64,000 nt of DNA from assembly GCA_019636475.1 (NCBI GenBank), contig JAHBXN010000004.1:1-64000 (forward strand), written 5' to 3'. The stretch comes from Phycisphaerae bacterium. GTDB lineage: Bacteria > Planctomycetota > Phycisphaerae > UBA1845 > UTPLA1. Below are positions 9,524 to 30,187 of this stretch, piece after piece. Both the position numbers and the translations under genes were made by a program. Position 1 is the stretch's first letter; every line of letters starts with the position of its first letter. The notes under the pieces were generated by a model. The model worked only from the letters and a program-made list of their open reading frames with translations. It did no database searches and had not been told where the DNA came from.

Positions 9524-10243
9524 TTAGCGCGTCTTGCGTCGAAGTACGAACACGCTGCCGAGAACCAGAAGAGACATCGTCGTCGGCTCCGGAACGATCA
9601 CGAACACGCTGTTAACGGTCGCTTGGTCGCCCGGCGAAAGCGTGAAGCTATGATCAATGCCGATGTTATTGAGGAAGGCGACGTTTGGGCCTGCCTCAGG
9701 ACCATAGTTCAGGTTATCGCTGGTCGCGAACGGCGGAGGATTGGACAGGGTGTAGGGATCATCGAACAGCGTCCGGACGCCGACGCCGTTGACCTTCGCC
9801 GTGTAAATCGACGAACCGGAAGTGGCCGACATGGTCATGCCGCCGGAAGCGTTCGCATCAACGACTGAAATTGCAGAGCCACCAGAAATGGTGGTGCTTC
9901 CGCCCGTCGCAAACGCGGTCGGCATCAGGACGTTCAGCGAGTAGGTTTGCGTCACGCCCGTGTTGTTGGTCACCGCAAATACGCCGGCAACCACCGGATC
10001 CGCGTTGAAGTAAACGTTTGACCAGGTAAGCGTCCACCCGCTGGTGGATTGGCTTCCATCCGGTACCGAATACTCAGGCGAACCATCGGTCGAACCGGGT
10101 ATCGGAAGCGTCCAACTGTTCCCCGAACCCCAGCTCAAGGTGATGGTCGCGCCTTGGAATGCATTGGACTCATCGGCTCGCGCGACCGATCCGATCGATA
10201 CGAGGGCAATCGCGGCGACTGCGAGTAGCTTTCTATACGACAT
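9524..10243 (-). CDS. PEP-CTERM sorting domain protein
   Basis: A 239-residue secreted protein with a signal peptide (residues 1-24, ending in V-A-R-A-D) and a typical C-terminal sorting signal: V-P-E-P-T, a hydrophobic helix L-L-V-L-G-S-V-F-V-L and a basic tail R-R-K-T-R. Such tails are recognised and cut by an exosortase in the inner membrane, after which the protein goes to the extracellular matrix. The body is Ser, Thr, Gly and Asn-rich with one cysteine-free beta-type domain and no named fold. The start at 10243 has GGAGAGGA 8 bases upstream; a longer frame to 10297 lacks this. The exosortase itself is not in the window, but an exopolysaccharide locus of the matching type begins 5 kb away. 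Confidence 0.88.
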   Translation of the reverse strand: MSYRKLLAVAAIALVSIGSVARADESNAFQGATITLSWGSGNSWTLPIPGSTDGSPEYSVPDGSQSTSGWTLTWSNVYFNADPVVAGVFAVTNNTGVTQTYSLNVLMPTAFATGGSTTISGGSAISVVDANASGGMTMSATSGSSIYTAKVNGVGVRTLFDDPYTLSNPPPFATSDNLNYGPEAGPNVAFLNNIGIDHSFTLSPGDQATVNSVFVIVPEPTTMSLLVLGSVFVLRRKTR

Positions 10244-10366
10244 GGTTTCGTTCCTCTCCACTACCTGGTGCCACAGTCCTGACATCATCCTGGGCATCCC
10301 TTTCCGTCTTTTCTGCCTGAAGCGACTGGCCCGAGCCGAATCGCTTCTTTCCCTTACCAGACGTAA

Positions 10367-13693: not shown

Positions 13694-15532
13694 GTGATGT
13701 ATCGCGCTGCGTGTCGCCGATTTCTGATCGTAACCGCGTTTGTGAGTGCGGCTTCGCCGGCCTCCTCCGTGATCGGGCAACCTCCTCCGCCACCGTTGCC
13801 GCCTCTCCCCCCGGTGCCGGTGCCGGCGCAGAATCCGATTACGGAGCCGAAGCGCGTTCTTGGAAAAATCCTCTTCTGGGATGAGCAACTCTCAAGCGAC
13901 AACTCGATCGCATGCGGCACCTGCCACAAGCCCGGCTTCGGCGGGACCGATCCGCGTGTCGCGCGGAATCCCGGTCTCGACGGCAATCTGAACACGCCGG
14001 ACGACATCTTCGCATCGCCGGGCGTCGTACTTTGCGACCAGGATCAGGACTTCAAAGCCGACGACATCTTTGGCTTCCAGCGTCAGATCACGCCAAGGGC
14101 GGCCAATCCGGCGATCATGGCCATGTTCGCGCCCGAGATTTTCTGGGACGGTCGTGCCCGTTCGACGTTTGTCAATCCCGAGACCGGTTCGGTCAGCATC
14201 CCGACGGGCGGCGCTCTGGAGAGTCAGGCTGTCGGGCCGATCCTCAGCGAGGTGGAGATGGGCCATGAAGGCCGCGACTGGGCCCAGATTGCGGCGAAAC
14301 TCGCCATCGCCAGGCCGATGGTGCTGGCAGAGGCGCTTCCTTCCGACATCAGTTCGGCGTTGCTGGCCCATCCGACCTATCCTGGCCTGTTCCAATCCGC
14401 CTTCGGTGACTCGGCCATAACGGCGGAGCGGATCGCGTTCGCGATCGCGACCTACGAGCGGACGCTGATACCCAATGAGACGCCCTGGGATCGTTTCAAC
14501 GCGGGTCAGGCAGGCGCGATGACACAGCAACAGATTCAAGGATTCAACGTGCTTCAGGGATCGCCCTGCGTCGCCTGCCATACGGCGCCGCAGTTCACGA
14601 ACAACTCGTTCCAGAACATCGGAATTCGCCCGGTTGCCGAGGACCGCGGCCGGCAGAATGTCACGGGGCTTGCGGTGGACCGTGGCCGCTTCAAGGTTCC
14701 GACACTCCGAAATGTCGGATTGAAGCCGACTTTCATGCACAACGGCGTGTTCAGTACGCTTCAGCAGGTCATCGGCTTCTATGCCAATCCTGCGGCACAG
14801 TTTCCCGATAACAAGTCGCCGCTCCTGCCCATTGGACTGCCGCCTCAGGCGGTTGGGGCCGTCATTGATTTCCTGTCCAACGGTCTGACCGATCCGCGAG
14901 TCCGTGACGAGCAATTTCCATTTGACCGGCCGCGACTTCAAGGTGACAACACCGTGCCCAATCCGCGGTTGATCGGCGGGGCGGTCGCCGGGAGCGGGGG
15001 ACGGGTTCCGCAGATGATTGCGGTGAGTCCGCCCAACGTCATGAATCTCGATTTCAAGGTGGGCGTCGCCAATGCGCTGGGCGGGGCCCAGGCGTATGTC
15101 GCGTGGTCGGAATCGCCGCCGGTCAATGGTCAACTGGTTGGCGCGACGTTACACGGACCGATCAGCCTGCCGGGCGACGGACCGGGAGCCGGCTTCGCGA
15201 CATGGAAGCAGCCGATCGACGAAACCATCATCGAGATGTGCAGCGCCTACGTGCAGTGGCAGATCGTCGATCCGGCGGCAATCGGCGGGTTCGCCAAGAG
15301 TCCGATTGCGCACCTTCGAATGGTGCCGTATCTCTGCGCATCGGGCGATATGAACTGCGATGGATCGCACGACGGGCTGGATGTCGAGGCATTTCTGGAT
15401 GCCGTGACCGATCCTGCGTCGTTCGGCACGACCTATGAAGGCTGCGCCATCAGCGAGGGGGATTTCAACGCGGACGGCGTGGTCAATCTCGCTGATCTAC
15501 CGTCGTTCGCATGGGCGCTCGTCAAGGGATGA
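13694..15532 (+). CDS. Di-heme cytochrome c peroxidase/MauG-family protein with dockerin-like tail
   Basis: A 612-residue exported protein. A signal peptide (1-28) is followed by a Pro-rich linker (P-P-P-P-P-L-P-P-L-P-P). The di-heme peroxidase/MauG region begins with L-G-K-I-L-F-W-D and has two heme sites, C-G-T-C-H (74-78) and C-V-A-C-H (292-296). It should reduce peroxide or oxidise a partner in the periplasm. At the C-terminus (about 553-612) two EF-hand-like loops, G-D-M-N-C-D-G-S-H-D-G-L-D and G-D-F-N-A-D-G-V-V-N-L-A-D, form a type I dockerin-like domain that binds calcium. The start is GTG 13694 or ATG 13697, both served by AGGAG. Confidence 0.88.
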   Translation: MMYRAACRRFLIVTAFVSAASPASSVIGQPPPPPLPPLPPVPVPAQNPITEPKRVLGKILFWDEQLSSDNSIACGTCHKPGFGGTDPRVARNPGLDGNLNTPDDIFASPGVVLCDQDQDFKADDIFGFQRQITPRAANPAIMAMFAPEIFWDGRARSTFVNPETGSVSIPTGGALESQAVGPILSEVEMGHEGRDWAQIAAKLAIARPMVLAEALPSDISSALLAHPTYPGLFQSAFGDSAITAERIAFAIATYERTLIPNETPWDRFNAGQAGAMTQQQIQGFNVLQGSPCVACHTAPQFTNNSFQNIGIRPVAEDRGRQNVTGLAVDRGRFKVPTLRNVGLKPTFMHNGVFSTLQQVIGFYANPAAQFPDNKSPLLPIGLPPQAVGAVIDFLSNGLTDPRVRDEQFPFDRPRLQGDNTVPNPRLIGGAVAGSGGRVPQMIAVSPPNVMNLDFKVGVANALGGAQAYVAWSESPPVNGQLVGATLHGPISLPGDGPGAGFATWKQPIDETIIEMCSAYVQWQIVDPAAIGGFAKSPIAHLRMVPYLCASGDMNCDGSHDGLDVEAFLDAVTDPASFGTTYEGCAISEGDFNADGVVNLADLPSFAWALVKG

Positions 15533-15615: not shown

Positions 15616-18600
15616 CTATGAACCCGCTTTCGGAATGTGCTTGATCAGCGCCTCTTCGCCGATCATTTCCTTCAACCAGTTGTTGATCTTCTGGCTATTC
15701 TGAACGAGTTGTCCGAGCGAGCCTGCCGTCGCAGTCAGTTTCGAGTGCATCGATGCCGACGGGGCTGCTCCCGGTTGCCCGGCATGGTCGGCCGCCGGCT
15801 CGGTTCTCAATTCATCGGCCGGCTCGTCGACCACATCGAGGATTGATGAATTCCGATTGCCAATCGACCGCGATCCTACCTTGTCGGCTGCGCGCACGCT
15901 GATGCGGTCGGCCTGCGTCCTGGTGCCGCGATCGACGACGGCGCTGGTCGCTGCACCGCTTTCGGATCGTGAATTCGGGCGGGGCGGCCGGTTCCTGGGG
16001 CTGTTTACATTCGCGGCCGGAGCCTGCCGCATTCGGGCGCCGGGCGTCTCGCGATCGAAGGTTCCGTCGCTTGCATCGAGCGCGGCGCGAAGCGATTCAA
16101 TTTCATGGGGTACGGTTCGGACTATGTCATCGACCTGACCGAGTCGGCCGCGAAGGCGTTCAATCCGGGCATCCATCGTGCCGTAGAGCTGACGAATGAT
16201 GCCAACGAGTTGGCCGAGACGCTCGGTATGCCGCTTCAGCAGATCGACCTTGTCGTCGGCCCTGGATGCGGCTTCATCCAACGCGGACTTGTTCTGTTCG
16301 GCTCGAGCCTCGGTGGTGGCGAGTTGTTTGACAATGGTTGAAATCTTGCGTGACATGGAGGTCAGTGCCTCGGCCTGTCGGCGTGCCTCGTCCACCAGTT
16401 CCCGGGGCATGGAGAGCAATGTCTCAGACCTGGCTTGTGCGGCCTGAGCCTGCCGGATGAGTTCCTCGGCCTGTGTCTGCGCGTTCTGATGTGATGCGAC
16501 CGACTTCGAGGAGAGCTGTTCGACCGATTCCCTGGCTTCAGCGAGATCAATCCGTGCGGCCGCGAGCTGCTGGCGCATCTGATCGGTCTCGGATGTGATT
16601 CGCGTGCGGAGTGATTGCACTTCGTCTCGAACTGCGGCGGTGGTTGATTCTGCCTTGTGAAGCAGGGACTCGGCCTGCGTGCGAAAGCCCTCGGCGGCGG
16701 TCTGTGCCTGAAGCAGCAACCGGGACGCGGATTCATTCAGCGTTTCGGCGCCGGAGTGCGCCCTGGCGAGCAGCTCATCGGCGTGTCCGCGGAGGGCGGC
16801 TGCGCCGCACTGCACCTGGTCGAGCAGCTTGGCGGCATTGTGTCGCATCCTCTCGCCGCTTTCCTCGACCTGCTGTCGGATCAGAGCGAGCCGCTTGAAG
16901 TTCGCGTCTGCGTCATGCTGCACCTGTTCGCGGAGGCCGCTGATCTGGCCTGTGACGTGCTCTCCGGTTCGCTGGATCAACTCGGCCTGCGATTTCGCCG
17001 ATGCCGCGATGTCGTCACTGACGACGAGCATTTCGCGCCGCAAACGATCCGCTCTTTCGGTCATCTGCAGGAGGCATTCACGTACTTCCGCCAGTCCATC
17101 CCTGGTTTGCTGGCGCAGTGCCGAGGTCGCGCGTTCCGAATCTGTGACGGATCTTTCCGCCTCATCGCGTGAAACAAGCAGGCGTTCGGCGATTTCCACC
17201 GCAGCGGAATCCGCCTGTTGATGGATGTCGAGGAGCTTCTGCGACGAATCAGCAAGCAGTGTCTCAAAGTCGCGGGCGGCGGTGTCCAATCTGGATCTCG
17301 CGGCTTCCTTGAGCAGGCCGATCTCGTTGCGCATCGTGGAAGTTGTTTCGTCAGCCTGCCGGCTGAGGGACGCGACCTGTGCGCGAGTCCCTTCGACCGC
17401 GGCTCGATTACGCTCGACCAGCGACGCGACTTCCTTCTGTGCGGCGCCGACTTCCTGGGCGAAACGGGCCTGGCACTCGCGCACACGGGCATCGGCGAGA
17501 GTGACGGCGTTTTCCAGCTCGCTGGAAATGCGAGCGGCTGACTGGCTTGCGATGTTGAGTTCGGCTTGCAGGGCGCGGACGCGCGCTTCGGCGTCGGTGT
17601 GTGCATTGTCAATGCGAAGGTCAATCGCATTGACCAGTTCATCGGCCCGCTGCACGGCGGTCTTCCGGTGTTCGGCAATTGCTGAATCCAGTGCCGCCCG
17701 CGCGTCCTCGAAGCGCGTCTGGAAATCGACCTTGATGGCCGCGGCATCGCTGGAGAGTCGCGCGATCTCCGAGCGATTTCGGACCAGAGTGGAGTCGAGC
17801 GATTCCTGCACCGAGGCCAGTTCGCCTGTGGCATGTTGCAGTATGGATTGAAGCTGTTCGCGAGACTGATCGGCGGCCTGTCGGGCGTCGGCCAGCTTCG
17901 TGGTGATTTCTCCGAGCGTGGCGATGCCGTCCGCCACGCGGGATTGGAGAATTTCTTCCGCTTTTTTGGTTTGTGCATCGGCACGGGCTCGCATTTCACC
18001 AAGGAGGCTGATGCACTGCTGTCGAGTGGATGTGAGCAATTCGTCGGCCTGTTTGAGCAACTGCGTGGCACGCACGCGATTGCCCTCCGCCTCGGCGACG
18101 AGTTGATCTCGAACGACTGTCAAGCCGGTCGCGGCACTCTTGATTCGTTCTTCCGCGGCGATCGACAGATCGGCGATTCGATTTTGAACCGTATCGACGC
18201 GCGTGCGCAGTTCGTTGGAGAATTGCTCGGCTTCGGCGGCCGCCGATTCGGCACGGGCAGTGGTGCGATCGCGAGCCGCCTGAATCTGCTCGACCACCTC
18301 CCATGCCTGCTTCTTGAGCAGCGTTCGAATCTCTTCCTGTTCGGCATCCAGTTTTGAGTTTCGTTCGCGTGCGGCCGCAATTGCTTCTTCAAACGCGGAC
18401 CGCAGCGTGCTGATCTCCGATTGATGCCGCTGTTCCATTTCAACGGCTCGCTCATCGGCCGCCGTGATTTTGTTTTCGAAGTTCCGGATCAGGGCTGCAA
18501 GCCGATTTTGCATGTCGGCCGTCTCGTCGCGAGTCGTGGCGACCAACGACCTCGCCTCTTCCACGAACTGAGCGGTCGTGCCGGCGGCCTTGTCGAGCGT

Positions 18601-19968
18601 TTCTTGAAGCTGCTGTTCAAACGCCGCCTGGGACTGGGCGATTCTTCGGGGGATCGCATCGGCTTCGGCGCGGAGCCCCTGGGCGGTCTCCATCGCGGTT
18701 TGAATCTCGCTTTGAAAGCGGGCAATTGCGGACTTGTGGTCATGGGCCGCCGTTTCCTCCGACGTGCGGATTGATTTGACGTGGCCGTCAGCGGATTCGG
18801 CTGCGCTCTCGGCGCGGGTGAGCGCCTGTCGCATTCGATCGTCGGCTTCGCGAATGGAGCGAGTGACATTCTTGAGCAGTTCGACGGCTTCGTTGCGAAT
18901 TCGCGTCGCTTCCATGCGTTCCGGAGAGTTTGCTGCGCCTTCCGATGATTCAATACCAGAACCGCCGCGTCGGGAACTCGCGCGGATTTTGCCTTCGATT
19001 GCGGCGAGTTTTTCGTCGAGCGATCGTACGTGTTCGGCCTGGCGGATCAGTTGTTCCTTCATTCCGGATTGCCCGATACCCGGAATGACGGTTTTCATCG
19101 CGGCGGATGCGGCATGTTCTGTATGCTGAAGTCCTGCGGCTGATGAGCGGCTGGTCGTGAGCGACATCATCTGGTCGATCACATCCTGTACCAGTTTCGA
19201 AGTCACCACCTTCGCGGATTCTGAATAGGCGGCAAGTAAAGCGTTGTCGCAAAGCTGGTTGATCAGACGTGGCACGCCGTCTGAGTGCAGGTAGATCGCT
19301 TCGTAAGCGGCCGGCTCGAAGATGGTCTGCTTTTCGTTGAGGCCGGCGACGCGAAGCCGATGTTCGACGTATTGTCGCGTTTGATCGCGATTCAGCGCGC
19401 GAAGATGAAAGGTACGGAAGATCCGCTGATAGGTCTGACGAAGCTCAGGGCGCCGAAATGTTTCCTGCAATTCGGGCTGGCCGAGCAGAAGTACCTGGAG
19501 CAGCTTGGCGTCATCGGCTTCGAGATTGCCGAGCATGCGCAGCTCTTCCAGAGCCTCAATCGGCAGATTCTGCGCTTCGTCAATGATGACCACTGCGAGT
19601 CGGTTTCTTGCGTATTGTTCGAGGAGGAAGTCCTCGAGCGCCCGCATATATTGCGCGGAAGTGGCGGAGTGCTGCACGTCAATCTCGAACTCCCGGCAAA
19701 TTGCGTCTAGGAGTTCGGGACCGTTGAGTCGCGTGTGGGTGATCAAAGCCGTCTTTACGTTCGCATCGACGCGATTGAGCACCATTCGACTCAACAGCGT
19801 TTTTCCCGCGCCGACTTCGCCGGAGACCAGGACGAAACCCTTGCGTTCCTCAACCGCATAAAGAAGCGATGCCAGCGCTTCCTCGTGATCCGGCGTGTTG
19901 TAGAAGAATCGCGGGTCGGGCGTGTTGTTGAACGGGGACGTCGTCAGCCCGAAGTACTCAAAATACAT
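15616..19968 (-). CDS. ExeA-like AAA ATPase fused to a very long coiled coil
   Basis: A 1,450-residue protein. Residues 1-270 are an ExeA/GspA-type AAA ATPase: M-Y-F-E-Y-F-G-L-T-T-S-P-F at the start, Walker A G-E-V-G-A-G-K-T (50-57), Walker B V-V-I-I-D-E-A-Q-N-L near 135-144. This matches the ATPase found in exosortase/PEP-CTERM exopolysaccharide loci. Residues about 330-1330 are almost unbroken Ala/Glu/Arg/Gln-rich heptads without Pro, a very long coiled coil. A basic disordered part follows and the end (N-N-W-L-K-E-M-I-G-E-E) may be an amphipathic anchor. The usual ATPase is about 270-350 residues long, so this is a large fusion. The ATG at 19968 has GAGGAG ahead of it. It is divergent from the export gene. 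Confidence 0.88.
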   Translation of the reverse strand: MYFEYFGLTTSPFNNTPDPRFFYNTPDHEEALASLLYAVEERKGFVLVSGEVGAGKTLLSRMVLNRVDANVKTALITHTRLNGPELLDAICREFEIDVQHSATSAQYMRALEDFLLEQYARNRLAVVIIDEAQNLPIEALEELRMLGNLEADDAKLLQVLLLGQPELQETFRRPELRQTYQRIFRTFHLRALNRDQTRQYVEHRLRVAGLNEKQTIFEPAAYEAIYLHSDGVPRLINQLCDNALLAAYSESAKVVTSKLVQDVIDQMMSLTTSRSSAAGLQHTEHAASAAMKTVIPGIGQSGMKEQLIRQAEHVRSLDEKLAAIEGKIRASSRRGGSGIESSEGAANSPERMEATRIRNEAVELLKNVTRSIREADDRMRQALTRAESAAESADGHVKSIRTSEETAAHDHKSAIARFQSEIQTAMETAQGLRAEADAIPRRIAQSQAAFEQQLQETLDKAAGTTAQFVEEARSLVATTRDETADMQNRLAALIRNFENKITAADERAVEMEQRHQSEISTLRSAFEEAIAAARERNSKLDAEQEEIRTLLKKQAWEVVEQIQAARDRTTARAESAAAEAEQFSNELRTRVDTVQNRIADLSIAAEERIKSAATGLTVVRDQLVAEAEGNRVRATQLLKQADELLTSTRQQCISLLGEMRARADAQTKKAEEILQSRVADGIATLGEITTKLADARQAADQSREQLQSILQHATGELASVQESLDSTLVRNRSEIARLSSDAAAIKVDFQTRFEDARAALDSAIAEHRKTAVQRADELVNAIDLRIDNAHTDAEARVRALQAELNIASQSAARISSELENAVTLADARVRECQARFAQEVGAAQKEVASLVERNRAAVEGTRAQVASLSRQADETTSTMRNEIGLLKEAARSRLDTAARDFETLLADSSQKLLDIHQQADSAAVEIAERLLVSRDEAERSVTDSERATSALRQQTRDGLAEVRECLLQMTERADRLRREMLVVSDDIAASAKSQAELIQRTGEHVTGQISGLREQVQHDADANFKRLALIRQQVEESGERMRHNAAKLLDQVQCGAAALRGHADELLARAHSGAETLNESASRLLLQAQTAAEGFRTQAESLLHKAESTTAAVRDEVQSLRTRITSETDQMRQQLAAARIDLAEARESVEQLSSKSVASHQNAQTQAEELIRQAQAAQARSETLLSMPRELVDEARRQAEALTSMSRKISTIVKQLATTEARAEQNKSALDEAASRADDKVDLLKRHTERLGQLVGIIRQLYGTMDARIERLRGRLGQVDDIVRTVPHEIESLRAALDASDGTFDRETPGARMRQAPAANVNSPRNRPPRPNSRSESGAATSAVVDRGTRTQADRISVRAADKVGSRSIGNRNSSILDVVDEPADELRTEPAADHAGQPGAAPSASMHSKLTATAGSLGQLVQNSQKINNWLKEMIGEEALIKHIPKAGS

Positions 19969-20423
19969 GCCGTGCTCCTCGCATGTCCGGCGGCGGCCCC
20001 GGCGGTCGAATCGACGTCGTCGGCTGCGGGCGGACGGAATGCATGCGTGACAAAGTGCAACGTGTCTCACCAGTTATCGGAAGTGGCGGATTCGATGCTT
20101 GATGGTTCGCTTTGGCGGCGGGCTGCAAGCGGATCGGCTCGGTCAACAGATGTCGGATTGGCGAGCTGATCGGCGCCGGCGGTTGCCGCACCGGCAAGAT
20201 TTGCCGACCCGCCTGATGACGGCGTTCGCGTTCCGTCGCGGGCGGGGGACTCACGTCAACCCTTCCTGAGCAAGCTTAATTTCCGACGGTCGCATAACTC
20301 AAAGTTCAGTCCGCTTTGCCTCGACCCGATAAGGGCTGCGGCAAAGAGTCGAAAGATGGGCGGTTTGTCAGATCGGCGGCTCTGTTGGCAAGGTTTTTCG
20401 AAGCGTCGTTTGGAACGGAATCC
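19969..20423. other. Divergent intergenic region between ATPase and export lipoprotein
   Basis: About 455 bases separate the two start codons. This must hold the promoters for both the ATPase gene (minus) and the exopolysaccharide genes (plus). I looked for a sigma-54 type -24/-12 pair, as in some PEP-CTERM systems, and found only TTGGCGGCGGGCTGC near 20112, whose spacing is one base short. No other site can be supported. Confidence 0.35.
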
Positions 20424-21212
20424 ATGACAAACGTGCAATTCAACAACTCGGCGCGGCGGGACACTCGATTCGGTCGATCGGTATGGTTTTCGGCCTCGTT
20501 GCTCCTGCCGCTCACCTGGTTTGTGGGCTGCGGCTCTGACGAGCACAAAATCAATGCCTTTATCCATGACTGGGAGGCATCGACGTCGGGAACCGAGTAT
20601 GTGGTTCAGCCGCCGGATGAACTTGAGATTACTTCGCCGACCGCCGGAGAAATTGACGGGGAGCGACATGTCGTCGGCGCGGATGGGAAGATCTCGTTGA
20701 GGCTCGTCGGGCAGGTGAAGGTCGCCGGTCTGACACCGGTGGACATCTCTCGAAAAATTGAGAATCTGCTGGCGACCTACTATCACTCACCCACCGTGAG
20801 CGTGCGCGTCATTCGAACATCGAGCAAGCGAATTTTCGTATTTGGTCAGGTCGCGCGAGGCGGCCCCTTCCCGTACAGCGGCCGTGACACCGTGCTGGAT
20901 GTGTTATCGCGTGCCCAGCCGACCTACCTGGCTGCGAAGGAGCAGATCAAACTGATCCGGCCAAGTCACGAGGGCACGAAGCGCCACACGATCACGATCG
21001 ACGGCTACAAGCTGATGGAGCAGGGTGACACGTCGTTGAACATGATTCTCGAAGAGGGCGATGTCATTTATGTGCCACCGACCGTGCTGGCGTGGATTGG
21101 TCTGCGTGTGCAGGAGGTGCTGTTCCCGATTCAGCCGATTGCACAGACGATCATCACGCCGGGCCAGACCAAGGTGTCGTACGACGTTCTCTATGAGGAC
21201 CGACGGAACTGA
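20424..21212 (+). CDS. Polysaccharide export outer-membrane lipoprotein (Wza-like)
   Basis: A 262-residue Poly_export family protein. The N-terminus has a basic stretch, a hydrophobic helix and a lipobox-like F-V-G-C at about residue 35. Residues 55-145 form the polysaccharide export domain, with Y-V-V-Q-P-P-D-E-L and G-K-I-S-L-R-L-V-G-Q-V-K-V-A-G-L-T. An SLBB domain follows with V-F-G-Q-V-A-R-G-G-P-F-P-Y. The last part, L-R-V-Q-E-V-L-F-P-I-Q-P, fits the C-terminal helix of Wza-type channels. It should form the outer-membrane exit for the polymer. The frame stays open upstream to 20316, but the ATG at 20424 has GGAACGGA before it and gives a proper signal sequence. It is the first gene of the plus-strand exopolysaccharide run. 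Confidence 0.9.
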   Translation: MTNVQFNNSARRDTRFGRSVWFSASLLLPLTWFVGCGSDEHKINAFIHDWEASTSGTEYVVQPPDELEITSPTAGEIDGERHVVGADGKISLRLVGQVKVAGLTPVDISRKIENLLATYYHSPTVSVRVIRTSSKRIFVFGQVARGGPFPYSGRDTVLDVLSRAQPTYLAAKEQIKLIRPSHEGTKRHTITIDGYKLMEQGDTSLNMILEEGDVIYVPPTVLAWIGLRVQEVLFPIQPIAQTIITPGQTKVSYDVLYEDRRN

Positions 21213-21276: not shown

Positions 21277-22971
21277 ATGCAGCCGCATCATCACCATGTT
21301 GACGAGTTTTCCGTGACCGACGTTCGGCACACGCTGCACGAACTGTGGCGCGTACTGGTCGTGCGCCGCTGGTATTTTCTTTTTCCGTTCTGCCTTGTCA
21401 CATCGATCGCCTGTTTGTGCTCGCTCTATGCGCCGCGCAAATACATGGCGTCCACGATCATCAAGCGTGAACACGATCCGGTCTTCGCGAGCCTTAAGAC
21501 GAAGAGTTGGATCCAGCCGTACGAAGACCTCCGAAAGCGGGTGGCCGCCGACATTGCCGATCCGCGGTTCATCGAGGAAGTGCTTCGTCGTTCGAACCTG
21601 CCGGTGATCATCGATCGGACTTCCAAGGACGGCGAGTTCGAGTCGACCGACATGGTTCGAGCGCGCCTTGCGAAGGAGATTTCGGCCGGGCTGACGGTCA
21701 AGACGCTCGAGGCATCTGAGCACCGAGACATCCTCCAGATCAGCCTGACAATGCGTGAACCCTCACGAATCGCCGACATCCTGCAGCTGCTGAGAGAGAG
21801 CTACATGGAATATTCGCGCAAGAAATCGGCAACCGTTCTGGAGAACGTACGCCGGTTTCTGCAGGACGAGGTCACGCGATGCGCCGACGAGGTGAGCGGC
21901 CTGGCCGCCAGAATTTCGGATATGGAGATGCAGTATCCGGGCATCAGCACAGAGAAAGGCGACCCACTGTCGGCGGAGCGAAGCGCGCTCATCATGGAGC
22001 GCGTCGATGCCCAGCGTCGGCTTGACGACGCCACATTTCGCAGGGAGCAACTTGAAGCCCGGCTGGCGCGAGCCAAAGGTACGCAAGTCAATCCGGAGTC
22101 CGGTGAACCGCCGATGTTTGAGAAGGCGAATCCGCGGTATTCGGAACTTCTCACCGAGATCAAGAACCTCGAAGAGAAAATCATCGTTTGTCGCACGCGC
22201 CGCGGCATGACCGAGGCCCATCCCGAGGTTCGCAGTACGCGCGCGCTTCTCGAAGAGCGCACCGCCGAGCTGGCGAACACGCCTCGCACGGTCGTGTCCG
22301 CGGAATCCGGCGGCGCACTGCGGGCGAATTCGGTCAGTGCTATCGACGAGATCGAGCGTCAGTTGGGCGACACCACGGCGACCACGAACGTGATCGTATC
22401 GAGGATGGAGGTCATCGACCGGCGCTTGAAGGAAATCGATGGAAAGCGGCAACTGGCAGTCGAGCACCGGCCCGCCTATGCGGCGCTTCGGGACCGGCAC
22501 CAGCAACTGGAAGTGGACCTGGTGAACTGGCGCAAGGAAATCGCACCGATCGAGAACGTGCTGTACCTTGAAGGCCAGGGACGGAGCGTCCATTTTGCGA
22601 CGATTCAGGAGCCGACGTCGGCGACGAAGCCGGTTTCCCCTGATTCGATGCTTGTGCTGCTCATTTGTTTTGGTCTGGGCGGAGCGGCCGGTGTTCTAGC
22701 GGTGATCGCGGTTGAAGTGTGCGATCGATCGTATCGAAGCGTGAAACAGCTTACCGCATCACTGGGCGTTCCCGTTATCGAAAGTGTCGATGAGATCCTT
22801 CCGGCCGGTGTGCGGCGCCGGCGATTGATCCGGAGTCTTGTGGTGATGCCGGCGTTGGCCGTGGTCATGCTTGTCACCGTGTCATTGGCCGGGACGATGG
22901 CGTATTACAGTCTTGAACGACCAGACGACTTCGCCCGTTTGCAGCCGCTGGGGCGTGCGCTGGGCCAATAA
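21277..22971 (+). CDS. Wzz/GumC-type polysaccharide chain-length determinant
   Basis: A 564-residue polysaccharide co-polymerase. Membrane segment 1 is at about 33-55 (W-Y-F-L-F-P-F-C-L-V-T-S-I-A-C-L) and segment 2 at about 450-475 (M-L-V-L-L-I-C-F-G-L-G-G-A-A-G-V-L); between them is a large periplasmic coiled-coil domain, the Wzz/GumC arrangement. A third hydrophobic stretch near 525-545 is extra. There is no kinase domain; that is a separate gene downstream. It should set chain length and couple the CpsD-type ATPase to the outer-membrane exporter. GAGGAACC precedes the ATG; the gene follows the export protein by 64 bp. Confidence 0.9.
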   Translation: MQPHHHHVDEFSVTDVRHTLHELWRVLVVRRWYFLFPFCLVTSIACLCSLYAPRKYMASTIIKREHDPVFASLKTKSWIQPYEDLRKRVAADIADPRFIEEVLRRSNLPVIIDRTSKDGEFESTDMVRARLAKEISAGLTVKTLEASEHRDILQISLTMREPSRIADILQLLRESYMEYSRKKSATVLENVRRFLQDEVTRCADEVSGLAARISDMEMQYPGISTEKGDPLSAERSALIMERVDAQRRLDDATFRREQLEARLARAKGTQVNPESGEPPMFEKANPRYSELLTEIKNLEEKIIVCRTRRGMTEAHPEVRSTRALLEERTAELANTPRTVVSAESGGALRANSVSAIDEIERQLGDTTATTNVIVSRMEVIDRRLKEIDGKRQLAVEHRPAYAALRDRHQQLEVDLVNWRKEIAPIENVLYLEGQGRSVHFATIQEPTSATKPVSPDSMLVLLICFGLGGAAGVLAVIAVEVCDRSYRSVKQLTASLGVPVIESVDEILPAGVRRRRLIRSLVVMPALAVVMLVTVSLAGTMAYYSLERPDDFARLQPLGRALGQ

Positions 22972-23049: not shown

Positions 23050-23964
23050 ATGGGTCGTATCGCGGACGCAATCAAGAAGGCGAAGGACGAGCGCGAGCGG
23101 AGGCAGCGGACAGCCGACGCGATCGTGAACATGCCTGGCGCGGCTCCTGCGATGGAGTCGCTCACATCCAACAGCGATGCAGCGAATGAGCCGCCACTTT
23201 CCGGCTCGGCGCCGAATTCGGGGAGCACTCCGATTCCGGGCGCAACCGAGGCGGAGAGGTTCGCAATCGGATCCTCCGCGGTCTGGGACGTTCATCCGAC
23301 GGTGGTCGCGGTGATGGAACGATCGTCGATCATCACTGAACAATATCGCGCGGCGAGGACGTGGCTGTTGCGTCGCTATTCACCGAGCAAAATGAACTGC
23401 GTCGCGATCACCAGCAGCCTTCCGCGAGAGGGCAAGAGCGTGACGACGGCAAATCTTGCCGCCGTGATGGCTGAAGTGCGACATATGAACGTGCTGGCGA
23501 TGGACTGCGATTTCAGGCAGTGCAGCATGGCGAAATTGTTCAAGATGCCCAATTCGCCGGGCTTGTCGGACGTGCTGTCCGGCCGGGCCACGCTCAACGA
23601 TGCGATTCAGCGTACGCCCTTGGGCAATCTCTACATTCTGACCGGTGGCGGGAGCCGTGACGTCAATTCGACCGAGCTGCTGGCATCGCGGTCCGCGGCG
23701 AAGGTGTTTGATGAGATCCGCGAGAGGTTTCATTATACGTTGGTCGATACACCTCCTGTGCAATGCCTTTCGGACGTCGGCGTCATCGGCGCGCTATGCT
23801 CGGGCATTGTGATGGTGGTCCGGATGAACAAGACGGCATCGCACGTCGTGCGTCAATCGCTTCACCGGCTGCAGGCGAACAATCTTCCGGTTCTGGGCTG
23901 CATCGCCGCGGATTGCAGCGTGAAGGGCGCCCGCTACGAATACGATGGAAAAGATCACAATTGA
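23050..23964 (+). CDS. CpsD/CapB-type tyrosine-kinase-like ATPase
   Basis: A 304-residue P-loop protein of the bacterial tyrosine kinase type used in exopolysaccharide loci. Walker A is T-S-S-L-P-R-E-G-K-S (121-130), Walker A' is V-L-A-M-D-C-D (148-154) and the Walker B region is L-V-D-T-P-P (231-236). The N-terminal 80 residues are a low-complexity linker. The usual C-terminal tyrosine cluster is reduced to two tyrosines (Y-E-Y-D), so autophosphorylation may be limited or occur elsewhere. It follows the chain-length protein whose cytoplasmic ends it should touch. The last 20 bases overlap the FemAB gene, implying translational coupling. Confidence 0.9.
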   Translation: MGRIADAIKKAKDERERRQRTADAIVNMPGAAPAMESLTSNSDAANEPPLSGSAPNSGSTPIPGATEAERFAIGSSAVWDVHPTVVAVMERSSIITEQYRAARTWLLRRYSPSKMNCVAITSSLPREGKSVTTANLAAVMAEVRHMNVLAMDCDFRQCSMAKLFKMPNSPGLSDVLSGRATLNDAIQRTPLGNLYILTGGGSRDVNSTELLASRSAAKVFDEIRERFHYTLVDTPPVQCLSDVGVIGALCSGIVMVVRMNKTASHVVRQSLHRLQANNLPVLGCIAADCSVKGARYEYDGKDHN

Positions 23965-25051
23965 TACTCCATCCAGGCCGTCCGCATCCAACACCGCGCC
24001 TGCCGCACCAAGCCATATTCGCGTCATCCGGTTTGATCCATCGCTTGCGCCGGTCTGGGAATCCTTCGTTGGCGATCATGGCTCCGCATCCTTTTTTCAC
24101 GGTCTAGGGTGGAAGCGTGCGGTCGAGCGCGCCTTCGGGCATCGCTTCCACGGATTCATGGCTTATGACGGCGATCGCCTGGCCGGCGTGCTTCCGATGC
24201 ATGAGGTTCGCAGCATCCTGGCCGGCCGATTGCTCGTCAGCATGCCCTATGCGACCTATGGCGGGATCGTCGCCGACGAGCCGAGCGTCGCAAAGGCGCT
24301 GTTTGATTCGGCCGTCGCATTCTGCAACGAACTCGGCGCGCGTTCTCTTGAACTGCGTTCGGTTCATTCGATGATTGCGGATCTGCCGTCTCGCGATTCG
24401 CACGCGACATTCATTCGTGAATTGCCGGCTGCACGCGATGACGTGGATCAGATGCTTCCGCGAAAGGCACGCGCCGCGGCGCGTCGCGCGGCCGAACAGC
24501 ACGTGCTCAGTTGCACATTCGGCGAGGATGAACTTGAGACAATGTGGTCGCTTTACTCGCGATCCATGCGGCGACTGTCGTCTCCTAATTATCCTCTGCA
24601 CTTTTTTGAGGAGATCGTGTCCGCTCACCGCGGTCGGATCGCGATCCAGATCGTTCGACTCGACACCCGGCCGATTGCCGGACTTCTCATCTTCCTTCAT
24701 CGCGACACGGTGATGCCGTATTTCGTGGGTATTGATGAGCGCGCGGACGTCTATGGCCTGAGCCAATATCTGTACTCCGAATCGATGAAATGGGGCGTCG
24801 CGAACGGTTACCGGCGATACGATTTCGGTCGATCGCGAATCGACAACAAGGGACCGTTCGAGTTCAAGCGACTCTGCGGATTTGAGCCGAGCGTGTTGCA
24901 GTATCAGACGTACCTCGCGCCGGGACGGAGCGCGCCGGATCTGTCACCCACATCGAGTCGGTGGTCCGCCGCGAGACGCGTTTGGAAGACGTTGCCGTTG
25001 TCGGTGACGCGACCGCTGGGCGGATGGCTGGCACGATCGATTCCGGGATAG
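23945..25051 (+). CDS. FemAB-like GNAT acyltransferase of the exosortase-type locus
   Basis: A 368-residue protein of the FemAB-related family typical of PEP-CTERM exopolysaccharide clusters, with two GNAT-like halves. Seen are W-E-S-F-V-G-D-H-G-S-A-S-F-F-H near the start, the acceptor/CoA-type segment R-K-A-R-A-A-A-R-R-A around 175, and Y-L-Y-S-E-S-M-K-W-G-V-A-N-G-Y-R-R-Y-D-F-G-R-S around 280-303, the usual second-domain motif. It probably transfers an amino acyl or other acyl group to the polymer or an anchor; the substrate is unknown. The start overlaps the ATPase gene by 20 bp. Confidence 0.85.
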   Translation: MEKITIDTPSRPSASNTAPAAPSHIRVIRFDPSLAPVWESFVGDHGSASFFHGLGWKRAVERAFGHRFHGFMAYDGDRLAGVLPMHEVRSILAGRLLVSMPYATYGGIVADEPSVAKALFDSAVAFCNELGARSLELRSVHSMIADLPSRDSHATFIRELPAARDDVDQMLPRKARAAARRAAEQHVLSCTFGEDELETMWSLYSRSMRRLSSPNYPLHFFEEIVSAHRGRIAIQIVRLDTRPIAGLLIFLHRDTVMPYFVGIDERADVYGLSQYLYSESMKWGVANGYRRYDFGRSRIDNKGPFEFKRLCGFEPSVLQYQTYLAPGRSAPDLSPTSSRWSAARRVWKTLPLSVTRPLGGWLARSIPG

Positions 25052-25130: not shown

Positions 25131-26396
25131 GTGCAGGAACGATTGAAAATCCTTTATCTTTCGAACCGTGTCCCTTATCCGCCGGATAAGGGTGATCGGA
25201 TTCGCACGTTTCATGCAATCGAACATCTGGCCGCGGCCCACGACGTTTACTGCGCGTGCTTCGCATCGGACGAGAGCGAAATGCGTCAGGCGGAGCGGCT
25301 GCGGCAATGGTGCCGCGATGTGACGGTGTTGCGCCGCGGGGTGCCGCTGGCGTGTCTCCACGCGGCGTGGGGCGCTGTTCACGGGAGGCCGCTGACGGAA
25401 TCGGCGTATCGCTCGACCGAGATGTATCGCCGCTTGCGACTTTGGTCTTTGTCGATCGGGTTTGATGTGGTCGTCGCGTTCTCATCGATGATGGCAGACT
25501 ATGCGCTGACGATTCCGGATTGCCGGCGCGTCATCGATCTGTGCGATGTGGACAGCGAAAAATGGATCGATTATTCGCGGGCATCCAGAGGCCTGCTTGC
25601 GGCCGGATGCCGAATGGAGGCCGAGAGACTGCGGTGTCTTGAGACACGCTGCCTTCGGGAGTTCGATGCGTCCATCGTGATTACGGAAAATGAAAGGCGG
25701 ATGATAGGGGCTGGCGAAGCGGGCGCGGTGCATGTGGTTCCGAACGGCGTGCGGCGGATCAGCGAATCAGCCATTTGTTCCGCCGATGAATGTGGCCCGG
25801 TTATCGGCTTCCTGGGCACGATGAGCTATCCGCCGAATGTGCAGGCGGTCCGCTGGTTCGCGGAGCGGGTCTGGCCGCTCGTTCAAATGAAGATGGCTGA
25901 TGCTCGATTTCTCGTCGTTGGTCGACGGCCGACGCGCGCGGTGCGGCGATTGGGGCGGCTGCCGGGAATTGAAGTCACGGGTGCGGTTGTGGACGCGACT
26001 GAGTATCTCGCCCGTTGCCGTGTGATTGTCGCGCCGCTTAGGCTGGCACGGGGCATTCCGAACAAGGTGCTGGAGGCGATGGCGGCAGGGCGGCCGGTCG
26101 TGTCAACTCGTGCCGTTGGTTTGACGCTTGATGCCACGGCAGGACAGGAGATTGTCATCGCCGACGAGCCGGAGCAGATGGCGGAGCAGGTCATCGGCCT
26201 TTGCACGGACGACACGAGGTGCAGGCGAATCGGAATGGCCGGCCGTGAGTTCGTGAGAATGCGGCATCATTGGCCGGATGCGATGTTGCTTTTTGAGCGG
26301 ATCGTCACAGGTTGTCCGGCTGGAGAGCGGCGAACTCTGCCACTGGACGCGCGAATCTTGCCGGTCGGCCGCTCCAGACAGCGTCAAACTGTCTGA
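25131..26396 (+). CDS. Glycosyltransferase, PEP-CTERM/EpsH1-type sugar transferase
   Basis: A 421-residue GT4-type (GT-B fold) glycosyltransferase. The N-terminus L-Y-L-S-N-R-V-P-Y-P-P-D-K-G-D-R-I-R is the signature of sugar transferases encoded in exosortase/EpsH loci. The donor-binding half has G-F-L-G-T-M-S-Y-P-P-N and, around 300-325, R-L-A-R-G-I-P-N-K-V-L-E-A-M-A-A-G-R-P-V-V-S-T, the nucleotide-sugar Glu region. The GTG start lacks a strong ribosome site; a TTG 9 bases later with AGGA before it is an alternative. It follows the FemAB gene after 79 bp. The sugar is unknown. Confidence 0.9.
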   Translation: MQERLKILYLSNRVPYPPDKGDRIRTFHAIEHLAAAHDVYCACFASDESEMRQAERLRQWCRDVTVLRRGVPLACLHAAWGAVHGRPLTESAYRSTEMYRRLRLWSLSIGFDVVVAFSSMMADYALTIPDCRRVIDLCDVDSEKWIDYSRASRGLLAAGCRMEAERLRCLETRCLREFDASIVITENERRMIGAGEAGAVHVVPNGVRRISESAICSADECGPVIGFLGTMSYPPNVQAVRWFAERVWPLVQMKMADARFLVVGRRPTRAVRRLGRLPGIEVTGAVVDATEYLARCRVIVAPLRLARGIPNKVLEAMAAGRPVVSTRAVGLTLDATAGQEIVIADEPEQMAEQVIGLCTDDTRCRRIGMAGREFVRMRHHWPDAMLLFERIVTGCPAGERRTLPLDARILPVGRSRQRQTV

Positions 26397-28201: not shown

Positions 28202-29220
28202 CGCTGATTTCGTTCAATAGCACATTCGAACAATGGCCCGGGAAGTTCATGCGGAGTCTGCGCCGTCGGCAGAATGACATGTGCACGACGATTCTGACGT
28301 ATCACAGCATCTCGCGCGAGGAGAGCATCTTTACGACGGGGCCGGGAATGCGGCATCTGCCAAGCGACTTCGAGCGGGAGTTGGACTATCTCGCTGAGCA
28401 TTACAACGTGATCAGCCTGCGTGAGCTGACGGGGCAGTTGGAGCGTGGCGAGGAGCCGCGTCGAGCCATTGTGATAACGTTTGACGATGGGTTCGCGGAC
28501 TCGGTTCGACAGGCGCTGCCGATTCTGTATCGCCGCCGCATGCCGATGACGATTTTTCCGGTGACGTCGGTTATCGGCAATCGCGATCTGATGTGGCAGC
28601 ATAAGCTGGCGTGGCTGAGCGTGAACGGACACGAAGACCGCGTGTGGACGGCGTTGTCGGCGCGAGGCTGGCCGCCGACAAACTCGCGTGAGACGCTGCA
28701 CGACTATGTCCGATTGTACTTTCGAAACGACTTGTGCGACGCGCTGGAATGCGTATTGAAGGATGTCGGCACGAGCGGCTCGGAGTTGGCGCGACACTTT
28801 CGACCGTATCTGACGGAACAGGAGATCGCCGAATCCGATCCGGAGTATGTCGAGTTCGGCAATCATACGGACACCCATCCGGTCCTGTCGGCACTGACGG
28901 CCCAGCAGCAGATGGCGGAGATCGGGGCCGCCCGACGAAAACTGACGGAGTTGACGGGCCGTCAGCCGTTTGCGTTCGCCTATCCGTTCGGGCTTAAGCG
29001 TCATTACAACGACACAACAAGAAGTCTGGCAATTGATCTGGGTCATAGGGCCATCGTTGACATGCGTCGGCGACTGAACGTCGGCCTCGTCAATCCCCAC
29101 GATTTGAGCCGCAGGCCGGGGCCGTGTGGATCGCAGGCGGAATTCGAACGAATGATCGAGTCGCGTCCGGCCAACGCCGCTTCGCTGCCCGTTGAGGAGT
29201 CAAAGGATGTCGCGCGGTAA
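28198..29220 (+). CDS. Polysaccharide deacetylase (NodB/CE4 family)
   Basis: A 340-residue NodB-homology enzyme that removes acetyl groups from N-acetylated sugars of the polymer. The metal and catalytic motifs are F-D-D-G-F-A-D (95-101) and N-H-T-D-T-H-P (222-228). The opening L-T-Y-H-S-I-S is also typical. There is no signal peptide, so the enzyme probably acts on a lipid-linked precursor in the cytoplasm or relies on another route. It overlaps the glycosyltransferase before it by 4 bp (ATGA) and the next gene by 14 bp, so this is a tight operon. Confidence 0.9.
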   Translation: MTLISFNSTFEQWPGKFMRSLRRRQNDMCTTILTYHSISREESIFTTGPGMRHLPSDFERELDYLAEHYNVISLRELTGQLERGEEPRRAIVITFDDGFADSVRQALPILYRRRMPMTIFPVTSVIGNRDLMWQHKLAWLSVNGHEDRVWTALSARGWPPTNSRETLHDYVRLYFRNDLCDALECVLKDVGTSGSELARHFRPYLTEQEIAESDPEYVEFGNHTDTHPVLSALTAQQQMAEIGAARRKLTELTGRQPFAFAYPFGLKRHYNDTTRSLAIDLGHRAIVDMRRRLNVGLVNPHDLSRRPGPCGSQAEFERMIESRPANAASLPVEESKDVAR

Positions 29221-30187
29221 CACGCTGATAATTCCGCCGTATCCTGGCGAATTCGGCTGGGAATTGATGAACTGGCAGGGTCGAGTTCGCCGCGTGATCC
29301 GCGAGAGCGATTCGGCCCGCGTCTATGTCGTCGCGCCACCTGATCGGCGTGCGCTCTATAGCGACCTCATTGATGGGCGTGTCGTGCGTTTCTGCCCGAT
29401 GCCGCGTCATGAGTGGACGGGCGATGCGAATGACGATCATCGGATCGACGGTTCCGGCTCAGCGATTCCGCCGTCGACGCTCGAGTCGGAGTTGAGACAG
29501 GCGACGGCGGGGCATCTGGCGATTCTCGGCGTTCACACCGAAGGCGCGACGTGGTACATGCCGGGATTTCGATCGGAACTTTGTCCGGCAACTTGCGCGG
29601 AACAGGATTTCGTGTCGCTCCGTAAACAGCCGGACACGCGGACCGATGTTGTGCTGGTCCCGCGGGGGCGAGCGCTGGCGAGCGAGCGCAATCAGCCGGA
29701 GACCTGGTGGCAGGAACTGGCGGAGCGGCTTCGAAAGCGAGGTCTGAGCGTGGCGATGTATGCCGGTCGCATGGATCGAGCGATTCTTCAGCTTTCCGGT
29801 GCGCGACTTGCGGCCGGGGCGTCGACCGGCGGACTGCATCTCGCGAGCCTGTGCGGCTGTCCTCATTATGTGTGGGGCGCCGGCGCCGAAGAGCGCTGGA
29901 CCGCGATCCGGATGACGAATCGTCAGCGATATGAAACGGTATGGAATCCGCTGGGCACGCCCTGCATTTATGACGAGGTGGGCTGGCGACCTTCGCTGGA
30001 ACATGCGACGGCCGGCATATTGCGGGCGATTCAGAAGATCGGAGCTTCGAGGTATGGCGAAGCTCGGCGATCGATGGGCGCGAGATGGCGCGTTCGTCGC
30101 GGATTGGCGCGGGTACTGGAACCCGGCGCCGGGCGAAACGTCGTGCCGTGGCGTGTCCGGGAATTTGTACGAAATCACCTCGTTTGA
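29207..30187 (+). CDS. Glycosyltransferase-like protein of unknown specificity
   Basis: A 326-residue protein that I do not recognise with certainty. It opens with L-I-I-P-P-Y-P-G-E-F-G-W-E-L, a Gly-rich loop seen in some capsule-locus proteins. The C-terminal half has A-G-A-S-T-G-G-L-H-L-A-S-L-C-G-C-P and V-W-G-A-G, which resemble the donor site of GT9-like (heptosyltransferase-type) GT-B enzymes, where the pattern is G-D-T-G-x-x-H-L-A. Between lies D-V-V-L-V-P-R-G-R. A GT-B fold transferase for the polymer is the best guess. The ATG at 29207 has GAGGAG ahead and overlaps the deacetylase by 14 bp. Confidence 0.65.
   Translation: MSRGNTLIIPPYPGEFGWELMNWQGRVRRVIRESDSARVYVVAPPDRRALYSDLIDGRVVRFCPMPRHEWTGDANDDHRIDGSGSAIPPSTLESELRQATAGHLAILGVHTEGATWYMPGFRSELCPATCAEQDFVSLRKQPDTRTDVVLVPRGRALASERNQPETWWQELAERLRKRGLSVAMYAGRMDRAILQLSGARLAAGASTGGLHLASLCGCPHYVWGAGAEERWTAIRMTNRQRYETVWNPLGTPCIYDEVGWRPSLEHATAGILRAIQKIGASRYGEARRSMGARWRVRRGLARVLEPGAGRNVVPWRVREFVRNHLV

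What the first reader, a model, noticed from the sequence alone, without database searches (positions are those of the whole stretch)
15616..19968. Exosortase-type ATPase fused to about 1,000 residues of coiled coil
The first 270 residues match the ExeA-like ATPase of PEP-CTERM exopolysaccharide loci. Here the ATPase continues into an extremely long, almost proline-free heptad region, then a basic disordered segment and a possible amphipathic anchor. A coiled coil of this length could span the periplasm or cytoplasm as a rod (about 150 nm if fully extended) and might link an ATP-driven secretion motor to the envelope or to a cytoskeleton. I know of no such fusion.
Basis: partly seen in the sequence, partly recalled or inferred. 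Interest (0 to 1): 0.62.

Follow-up and report, generated by a model that had tools for sequence, protein, structure and literature searches.

The report
ATPase-headed coiled-coil rod at polysaccharide locus
A planctomycete gene makes one very long protein: an ATP-burning head of the kind that helps build export machines, a long helical rod of variable length, and a short conserved tail peptide; it recurs beside sugar-polymer export genes and may be an unrecognised internal scaffold.

Summary
In detail: 15616-19968(-) is one open 1,450-residue frame with an ExeA/TIGR03015-like AAA+ domain (1-267), a nearly proline-free helical rod and a disordered tail. It is no artefact: 15 of 16 same-family genomes carry the same head+rod arrangement, divergent from the polysaccharide-export operon. 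Corrections: most of the rod is not heptad; its hydrophobic stripe repeats every 3.60 residues (18/5, nearly straight), with heptads near its end only. The tail is not basic. Hydropathy shows no membrane span, so a periplasmic rod is unsupported. New: a conserved cap ends the rod, and behind a proline-containing linker a specific 24-residue C-terminal peptide is conserved in 16 of 16 proteins, while the rod varies from 456 to 1,291 residues. In the order, 61 of 150 listed ATPase frames are 900 residues or longer; in a sister family a similar rod exists with and without the ATPase at one locus. Proteobacterial ExeA/GspA relatives carry a membrane span, with peptidoglycan-binding domains, instead. 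Best reading (inferred): a cytoplasmic ATP-regulated tether/scaffold placing or assembling the export machine. New variant of a known kind.

The parts
19159..19968 (-). N-terminal AAA+ ATPase domain (residues 1-270), ExeA/TIGR03015-like; Walker A G50-T57, Walker B D130-E131, invariant R182, R204, R234
   Evidence: TIGR03015 273.9 bits (below cut-off), AAA_22 87.6 bits; invariant columns in 30 homologues; AlphaFold mean pLDDT 90.4 for residues 1-340, closest folds ORC/Cdc6, MuB, TnsC. Motif names are recalled.
16219..18978 (-). Rod (residues 331-1250): long helix, hydrophobic stripe of period 3.60 (18/5), changing to about 3.5 after residue 1130; contains 747 residues without proline
   Evidence: AlphaFold helix at 302-335 and 1132-1299; residues 341-1130 were not modelled
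16150..16218 (-). Conserved cap of the rod, residues 1251-1273 (LGQLVGIIRQLYGTMDARIERLR)
   Evidence: 16 of 16 same-family proteins, scores 67-112 against a shuffled maximum of 31; alignment
15724..16068 (-). Proline-containing disordered linker, residues 1301-1415
   Evidence: pLDDT mostly under 50; poorly conserved, length variable
15652..15723 (-). Conserved C-terminal peptide, residues 1416-1439 (GSLGQLVQNSQKINNWLKEMIGEE)
   Evidence: 16 of 16 same-family proteins, scores 63-114 against a shuffled maximum of 34; a profile finds it at the end of this frame in 16 of 17 family genomes; helix in AlphaFold
20316..21212 (+). Divergent neighbour: polysaccharide export protein (Poly_export; TIGR03027-like, below cut-off)
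   Evidence: nearest marker gene, divergent, in 55 of 71 loci and 16 of 16 in the same family
21277..22971 (+). Chain length determinant (Wzz / TIGR03007-like, below cut-offs)
23050..23964 (+). Tyrosine autokinase (TIGR01007 over cut-off; TIGR03018 below)
23945..25051 (+). FemAB family XrtA-associated protein (TIGR03019, over cut-off)
25131..26396 (+). XrtA-system glycosyltransferase (TIGR03087, over cut-off)

Best explanation
A cytoplasmic, ATP-regulated tether or scaffold of the exopolysaccharide (XrtA/PEP-CTERM type) export machine. SHOWN: one polypeptide = ExeA-family AAA+ head + long helical rod of variable length with a nearly straight stripe + conserved cap + disordered linker + specific C-terminal peptide; no membrane-span-like stretch; gene fixed next to, and divergent from, the export genes. 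INFERRED: the heads oligomerise (as AAA+ proteins of this fold commonly do, recalled) and act on the polysaccharide export or assembly apparatus at the inner membrane, in place of the membrane- and peptidoglycan-anchored arrangement of ExeA/GspA; the rods pair side by side as coiled coils and reach some 70-190 nm through the cytoplasm; the C-terminal peptide, on its flexible linker, docks on another protein (a landmark, the envelope or division machinery, or another export unit), so that ATP state controls where machines are placed or clustered. It would work like a Scy/FilP-type coiled-coil organiser with an ExeA-type ATPase head.
For: ATPase family and intact motifs. Rod periodicity above every one of 20 shuffles in 31 of 31 tails from proteins of 870 aa or more; Ala-rich like the non-heptad rods of FilP/Scy described in PMC9858780 (passages seen). 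Conserved cap and C-terminal peptide in 16 of 16 same-family proteins with a variable rod between; the peptide appears once, at this place, in 16 of 17 family genomes, the only other matches having E 0.24 and 0.53. Conserved N10, K12, N14 and W16 lie at different angles of the peptide helix, as expected of a protein-docking motif. Export gene as nearest, divergent marker in 16 of 16 same-family loci and 55 of 71 overall. No membrane-span-like stretch in planctomycete tails, whereas 4 of 5 proteobacterial relatives (L110, L112, L117, L114; not L108) have one, with PG_binding_1 in L110 and L112 and a SPOR match at cut-off in L114 (L117 not scanned). A similar rod is kept without the ATPase at one locus in a sister family, so such a rod can have a job of its own.
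Against: No oligomeric state, localisation or partner is known; function is inferred from anatomy and neighbourhood. An 18/5 stripe is also what one long amphipathic helix would have. AlphaFold was run on single chains of two end pieces only and shows helix, not pairing. In 16 of 71 homologues no export marker is found, including the longest (2,267 aa, L061), so such rods are not tied to polysaccharide export everywhere. The TIGR03015 score is below its curated cut-off. In 4 of 16 family members (two of them near-identical) the C-terminal peptide reaches HELIQUEST-type D above 1.34, so membrane binding of the peptide is not excluded. I found no paper that gives this ATPase a role in XrtA systems: none in the listing holds the term TIGR03015, and word searches in PMC1569441 and PMC9850573 found no mention of an ATPase.
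Confidence: 0.5

Rival explanations
1. Filament-forming cytoskeleton: rods assemble end-to-end and side-by-side into intermediate-filament-like bundles that shape the cell, with the ATPase as regulator; the export operon next door is only a neighbour.
For: Rod-only versions exist at one locus in a sister family; a 2,267-aa homologue without export markers nearby; analogy to FilP and Scy (PMC9858780, passages).
Against: Linkage to the export genes in 16 of 16 same-family loci; conserved ends with a variable middle suit a tether better than a lattice (inference).
Confidence: 0.2
2. Length ruler: rod length sets a distance or a chain length, as in phage tape-measure proteins (recalled), and its variation between species tracks a dimension of the machine.
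For: Variable rod between two conserved ends (456-1,291 residues); stripe phase roughly kept up to about residue 1190, where it flips.
Against: By hand from the lengths, rods are not multiples of 18 and show no common phase; no rigid cytoplasmic partner of 70-190 nm is known to me.
Confidence: 0.08
3. Giant amphipathic helix lying on a membrane or granule surface (perilipin/apolipoprotein-like).
For: Period 3.60 is close to that of an undistorted helix; weak Apolipoprotein match (27.5 bits, cut-off 90).
Against: Mean moment 0.31, mean net charge -0.5 per 18 residues, and only 1.4% of 951 rod windows reach D > 1.34 (score and threshold recalled from HELIQUEST).
Confidence: 0.07
4. Periplasm- or envelope-spanning rod.
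For: ExeA, a relative of the head, does reach the periplasm (PMC4098917, passages).
Against: No transmembrane-like stretch after the head (best 19-residue Kyte-Doolittle mean 0.73 in the window's tail and at most 1.52 in the planctomycete tails, against 1.73-2.72 in 4 proteobacterial relatives); the rod would be far longer than a periplasm is wide (recalled).
Confidence: 0.04

Closest known systems
XrtA/PEP-CTERM system-associated ATPase (NCBIfam TIGR03015)
   Same: Same AAA+ domain (residues 1-267, 273.9 bits) and the same kind of neighbours (export, chain length, tyrosine kinase, FemAB, glycosyltransferase genes)
   Different: Below the curated cut-off; the family model ends at 269 residues, whereas here an about 1,180-residue tail follows
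ExeA/GspA of type II secretion (AAA_22 + membrane span + peptidoglycan-binding domain)
   Same: Homologous ATPase, 37-43% identical to the proteobacterial relatives found; association with an envelope export machine
   Different: No membrane span and no peptidoglycan-binding or GspA C39-like domain; rod, linker and C-terminal peptide instead
FilP / Scy (DivIVA-like rods of Actinobacteria; PMC9858780, passages)
   Same: Very long, Ala-rich, non-heptad helical rod (Scy over 1,000 residues); cytoplasmic by inference
   Different: No DivIVA match; period 18/5, not the hendecad 11/3; AAA+ head; another phylum
MuB / TnsC / ORC-Cdc6 AAA+ ATPases
   Same: Closest solved folds of the head (Z about 20)
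   Different: DNA-acting; no such rod; only about 15-23% identity

Membership tests
TIGR03015 XrtA/PEP-CTERM ATPase | Score over the curated cut-off (324.5 bits) | tested here: not met
   273.9 bits, 278.8 bits; 0 of 114 genomes of the order pass, 3 of 294 of the phylum draw
TIGR03015 XrtA/PEP-CTERM ATPase | Full-length match of the ATPase domain with intact nucleotide-binding motifs | tested here: met
   profile 1-266 of 269; invariant Walker A/B columns
TIGR03015 XrtA/PEP-CTERM ATPase | Neighbouring XrtA-type exopolysaccharide genes and an exosortase in the genome | tested here: met
   TIGR03019 and TIGR03087 over cut-off, synteny, exosortase PF09721 at G000:C6
ExeA/GspA | AAA_22 ATPase domain | tested here: met
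   87.6 bits, cut-off 27
ExeA/GspA | Transmembrane segment after the ATPase | tested here: not met
   no hydrophobic stretch in Kyte-Doolittle scans; no dedicated predictor was run
ExeA/GspA | Peptidoglycan-binding domain | tested here: not met
   no match in the Pfam scan; present in L110 and L112
FilP/Scy (DivIVA-like) | DivIVA-like N-terminal motif | tested here: not met
   no DivIVA match in the Pfam scan; the N-terminus is an AAA+ domain
FilP/Scy (DivIVA-like) | Long Ala-rich non-heptad coiled-coil rod | tested here: inconclusive
   Ala-rich rod of period 3.60 shown; pairing of helices not testable here
SMC/Rad50 | ATPase halves at both ends joined by a coiled coil with a hinge (recalled) | tested here: not met
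   single N-terminal AAA+ domain; Rad50 model match 20.6 bits against a cut-off of 1087
Apolipoprotein (PF01442) | Score over the gathering cut-off | tested here: not met
   27.5 against 90 bits

The most novel reading that the evidence does not exclude
A lineage of Planctomycetota has turned the ExeA/GspA-type secretion-assembly ATPase into an ATP-controlled cytoskeletal tether: in place of a membrane and peptidoglycan anchor it has a 70-190 nm nearly straight (18/5) coiled-coil rod with a lineage-specific C-terminal docking peptide, so that polysaccharide-export machines are placed or clustered through the cytoplasm by ATPase-headed rods.
Probability: 0.35. Interest if true: 0.75.

Novelty: new variant of a known kind. 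Interest (0 to 1): 0.5.

Why it matters
I found no paper that gives the ATPase of XrtA/PEP-CTERM polysaccharide loci a job (listing; word searches). Here a rod with defined ends stands where relatives have an anchor, which turns a vague question into concrete ones: what binds the C-terminal peptide, and what does rod length control? It would also add an ATPase-headed rod to the very long non-heptad bacterial coiled coils, in a phylum with unusual cell organisation (recalled).

Tried and rejected
Frameshift or assembly join: rejected, because 15 of 16 same-family genomes show the same arrangement; the sixteenth, G004, has no TIGR03015 match and a rod fragment filling a 3,107-base contig. Chance open frame: rejected by protein-level conservation. 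Heptad rod: rejected for most of its length, though lag 7 is the third-best autocorrelation lag (z 6.7). Rod lengths as multiples of 18: no pattern, worked out by hand. Membrane-lying rod: disfavoured. SMC/Rad50-like hairpin: no second ATPase half. Exosortase in the window: the genome search shows none there; the strong match is on contig C6, a weaker one (35.9 bits) at C4:461330-461788. Second copies of the C-terminal peptide in the family genomes: only two chance-level matches. Homology of the f8 rods to the window's rod: profile A2 matches 26 f8 genomes and one f7 genome at E of 1e-5 or better, but coiled-coil composition makes this inconclusive, and the C-terminal peptides differ. Solved relatives of the rod end: only E 0.05 matches. 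Conserved surroundings for the long copies away from export genes: Pfam scan of 10 flanking frames from six such loci showed nothing shared. Literature on the fusion: (listings) named nothing like it; the one hit was not opened. Tape-measure parallel: no paper found. Searches on MshM and CslA/DivIVA (listings) and the abstract and outline of PMC13432765 carry no claim here.
Full report
THE OBSERVATION. The frame 15616-19968 on the minus strand is open for 1,450 residues. Residues 1-267 match TIGR03015, the XrtA/PEP-CTERM-associated ATPase, with 273.9 bits against a curated cut-off of 324.5, and AAA_22 with 87.6 bits. In an alignment of 30 homologues the Walker A stretch (G50, G53, G55, K56, T57), the Walker B pair D130-E131 and R182, R204, R234 are invariant. 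AlphaFold gives residues 1-340 a mean pLDDT of 90.4; the nearest solved folds are ORC/Cdc6, MuB and TnsC (Foldseek; Z about 20). The window's genome has one match to this ATPase at E 1e-3 or better.

THE ROD. Residues 351-1290 are 16-19% Ala with 3 prolines, and 441-1187 has none. Fourier analysis of residues 331-1250 gives a sharp peak at 3.60 residues, that is 18/5, with power 51 against a maximum of 8.2 in 30 shuffles; over the whole tail the power at 3.5 is 1.2. BLOSUM autocorrelation peaks at lag 18 (z 9.5) and 36 (z 7.8); lag 7 is third (z 6.7). Only about 1130-1290 is near 3.5, and the stripe's phase flips near 1195. PMC9858780 (passages) gives 3.63 residues per turn for an undistorted helix and derives supercoiling from the difference, so a stripe of 3.60 implies almost none; it describes FilP and Scy as Ala-rich non-heptad rods, Scy over 1,000 residues. 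PMC9369452 (one passage) mentions 18 = 14 + 4 as a delocalised insertion in heptads. A rod of 920 residues would be about 138 nm as one helix (0.15 nm per residue, recalled). AlphaFold models 1132-1299 as one helix, then disorder, then a helix 1418-1442; 341-1130 was not modelled.

IT RECURS. With the full protein as query, 37 of 41 genomes (the window's own plus 40 relatives) have a match. In the same family 15 of 16 other genomes have the ATPase at the head of a long frame; G004 has no ATPase match and a rod fragment filling a 3,107-base contig. Of 47 named loci with a related ATPase, all but six carry planctomycete titles, many of them Phycisphaerae; five of the six are proteobacterial, and the sixth, L113, titled an alphaproteobacterium, has the contig length of G023 in the window's order. 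Among 71 homologous frames, lengths from the ATPase start run from 164 (cut by a contig end) to 2,267 aa. In the order, 98 of 114 genomes have a TIGR03015 match at E 1e-20 or better; of the 150 listed matches in 96 genomes, 61 frames in 56 genomes are 900 residues or longer. These are open frames, not proteins: G028's 1,110 is 783 from the ATPase start, G390's 2,180 about 1,700, and further matches were not listed. On the ATPase tree of 68 rows 'long' needs 5 changes against a shuffled mean of 22.6; several end branches are long and two pairs of them meet, so I draw no root or count of origins from it.

FIXED ENDS, VARIABLE MIDDLE. In the 16 same-family proteins (two, L115 and L073, nearly identical) a cap around LGQLVGIIRQLYGTMDARIERLR ends the rod (scores 67-112, shuffled maximum 31) and a C-terminal peptide around GSLGELVQRNQKLNEWLKDVLGEE lies behind a variable linker (scores 63-114, shuffled maximum 34), 16 of 16 each, while residue 331 to the cap spans 456-1,291 residues. 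A profile of the peptide finds it in 16 of 17 family genomes at the end of this frame; the only other matches have E 0.24 and 0.53. L3, W16 and L17 are invariant, and G4, N10, K12 and L13 are in 15 of 16. The best HELIQUEST-type D of the peptide lies between 0.68 and 1.33 in 12 of 16 and above 1.34 in 4 (1.35 twice in the near-identical pair, 1.43, 1.72; score and threshold recalled), so a membrane role is not excluded, but conserved polar residues at several angles speak for a protein partner. Outside the family other ends are seen by eye: a short export-adjacent group with RLAxxVxxL-like ends and a second long group with ARNTA- and WPRxR-like ends, not in every member. All 31 tails from proteins of 870 aa or more beat their own 20 shuffles; 13 have period 3.58-3.62 and 12 have 3.49-3.53; the 16 same-family tails span 3.568-3.610, L101 only weakly (power 11.6 against 8.1).

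NEIGHBOURHOOD. The gene is divergent from genes for export protein, chain-length determinant, tyrosine kinase, FemAB and glycosyltransferases; TIGR01007, TIGR03019 and TIGR03087 pass their cut-offs, TIGR03027, TIGR03007 and TIGR03018 do not. Of the 16 window genes used as markers the export gene is the nearest, and divergent, in 55 of 71 homologues and in 16 of 16 of the family. In the other 16 it is not found, among them the 2,267-aa L061 and the five proteobacterial loci; some of these stretches are short. A scan of 10 flanking frames from six of these loci showed no shared partner. An exosortase is in 38 of 41 genomes; the window genome's strong match is on contig C6.

CONTRAST WITH THE CLASSICAL FAMILY. 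ExeA is described as a 60 kDa AAA ATPase with one membrane span and a peptidoglycan-binding periplasmic domain, needed with ExeB to assemble the ExeD secretin (PMC4098917, passages). Of my five proteobacterial relatives L110, L112, L117 and L114 have a span-like stretch (19-residue means 1.73-2.72) and L108 (Geobacter) has none. Pfam finds PG_binding_1 in L110 and L112, a GspA C39-like domain in L112, SPOR exactly at cut-off in L114, and none of these in L108; L117 was not scanned. The planctomycete tails stay at 1.52 or lower. So in this lineage a rod, linker and peptide stand where the anchor half would be. Which state is ancestral I did not test.

ROD WITHOUT HEAD. The rod-end profile A2 matches 26 genomes of family f8 and one of f7 beyond the window's family at E 1e-5 or better; coiled-coil composition makes homology to the window's rod inconclusive. 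I fetched 13 f8 stretches, most of them chosen because their frames were not in the ATPase list, so this is no random sample, and one f7 stretch. Twelve f8 frames match A2: 2 carry the ATPase (L126, L130), 7 are whole and show no match to the ATPase profile at E 1e-3 (L120-L125, L127) and 3 begin at or within a codon of a contig end (L128, L132, L133); the thirteenth stretch, L131, has the ATPase and no A2 match. L120, L123, L124 and L127 share an upstream neighbour with L126 and with L070, an ATPase-bearing frame (27% identity); L121 and L122 share other neighbours with L123 and L126; L125 is not linked. So at one locus a rod exists with and without the ATPase.

MECHANISM. Shown: anatomy, conservation, linkage, absence of a span-like stretch. 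Inferred: heads oligomerise; rods pair; the peptide docks; ATP state controls placement or assembly of the polysaccharide export machine. I put 0.5 on this tether/scaffold reading, 0.2 on a filament system unrelated to export, and less on ruler, membrane-lying helix and periplasmic rod. What it works like: a Scy/FilP-type organiser with an ExeA-type head. What it is a member of: the AAA_22/ExeA-TIGR03015 ATPase superfamily, by its head only; it fails the TIGR03015 cut-off and the ExeA/GspA anchor features.

NOVELTY. My paper searches (listings) named no such fusion, and Haft 2006 (PMC1569441) does not mention an ATPase (word search). Only open-licence papers were searched, so this is weak evidence of absence. 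I call it a new variant of a known kind.

Noticed in passing
window 37396-45313: A PilZ-domain gene, a GspE/PilB-type ATPase, a GspF/PilC-type protein and a PilM-like gene follow the polysaccharide locus.
   Followed up: no
window 29192-30187: 331-residue protein without Pfam or NCBIfam match, yet found (44-55% identity) in 13 of 16 same-family loci (the window's own included) and in none of the other 55 loci, some of which stop short.
   Followed up: no
window 9524-10297 (-): Protein ending in a PEP-CTERM-like tail (EPTT, hydrophobic stretch, RRK; motif label recalled); no Pfam or NCBIfam match.
   Followed up: no
window 13694-15532: Di-haem cytochrome c peroxidase (CCP_MauG, residues 53-272 of 612) with a long C-terminal extension, convergent with the rod gene.
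   Followed up: no
G128 contig C1, eight places: Eight matches with identical score (142.2 bits) and frame length (276 aa) to the ATPase model in one 4.4-Mb genome: looks like a repeated mobile element with an AAA_22-type ATPase.
   Followed up: no
L061 9911-16723 and L131 (G390:C200): ATPase-rod proteins of 2,267 residues (L061) and about 1,700 residues from the ATPase start in a frame of 2,180 (L131); no export marker gene near L061, surroundings of L131 not examined for export genes.
   Followed up: partly
L120-L124, L126, L127, L070: In sister family f8 one locus holds a rod with or without the ATPase; several ends look like RAxEIxxLIxDAK, seen by eye.
   Followed up: partly
L113: Record titled as an alphaproteobacterium has the contig length of G023, a genome placed in the window's order: the title may be a misnaming.
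   Followed up: no
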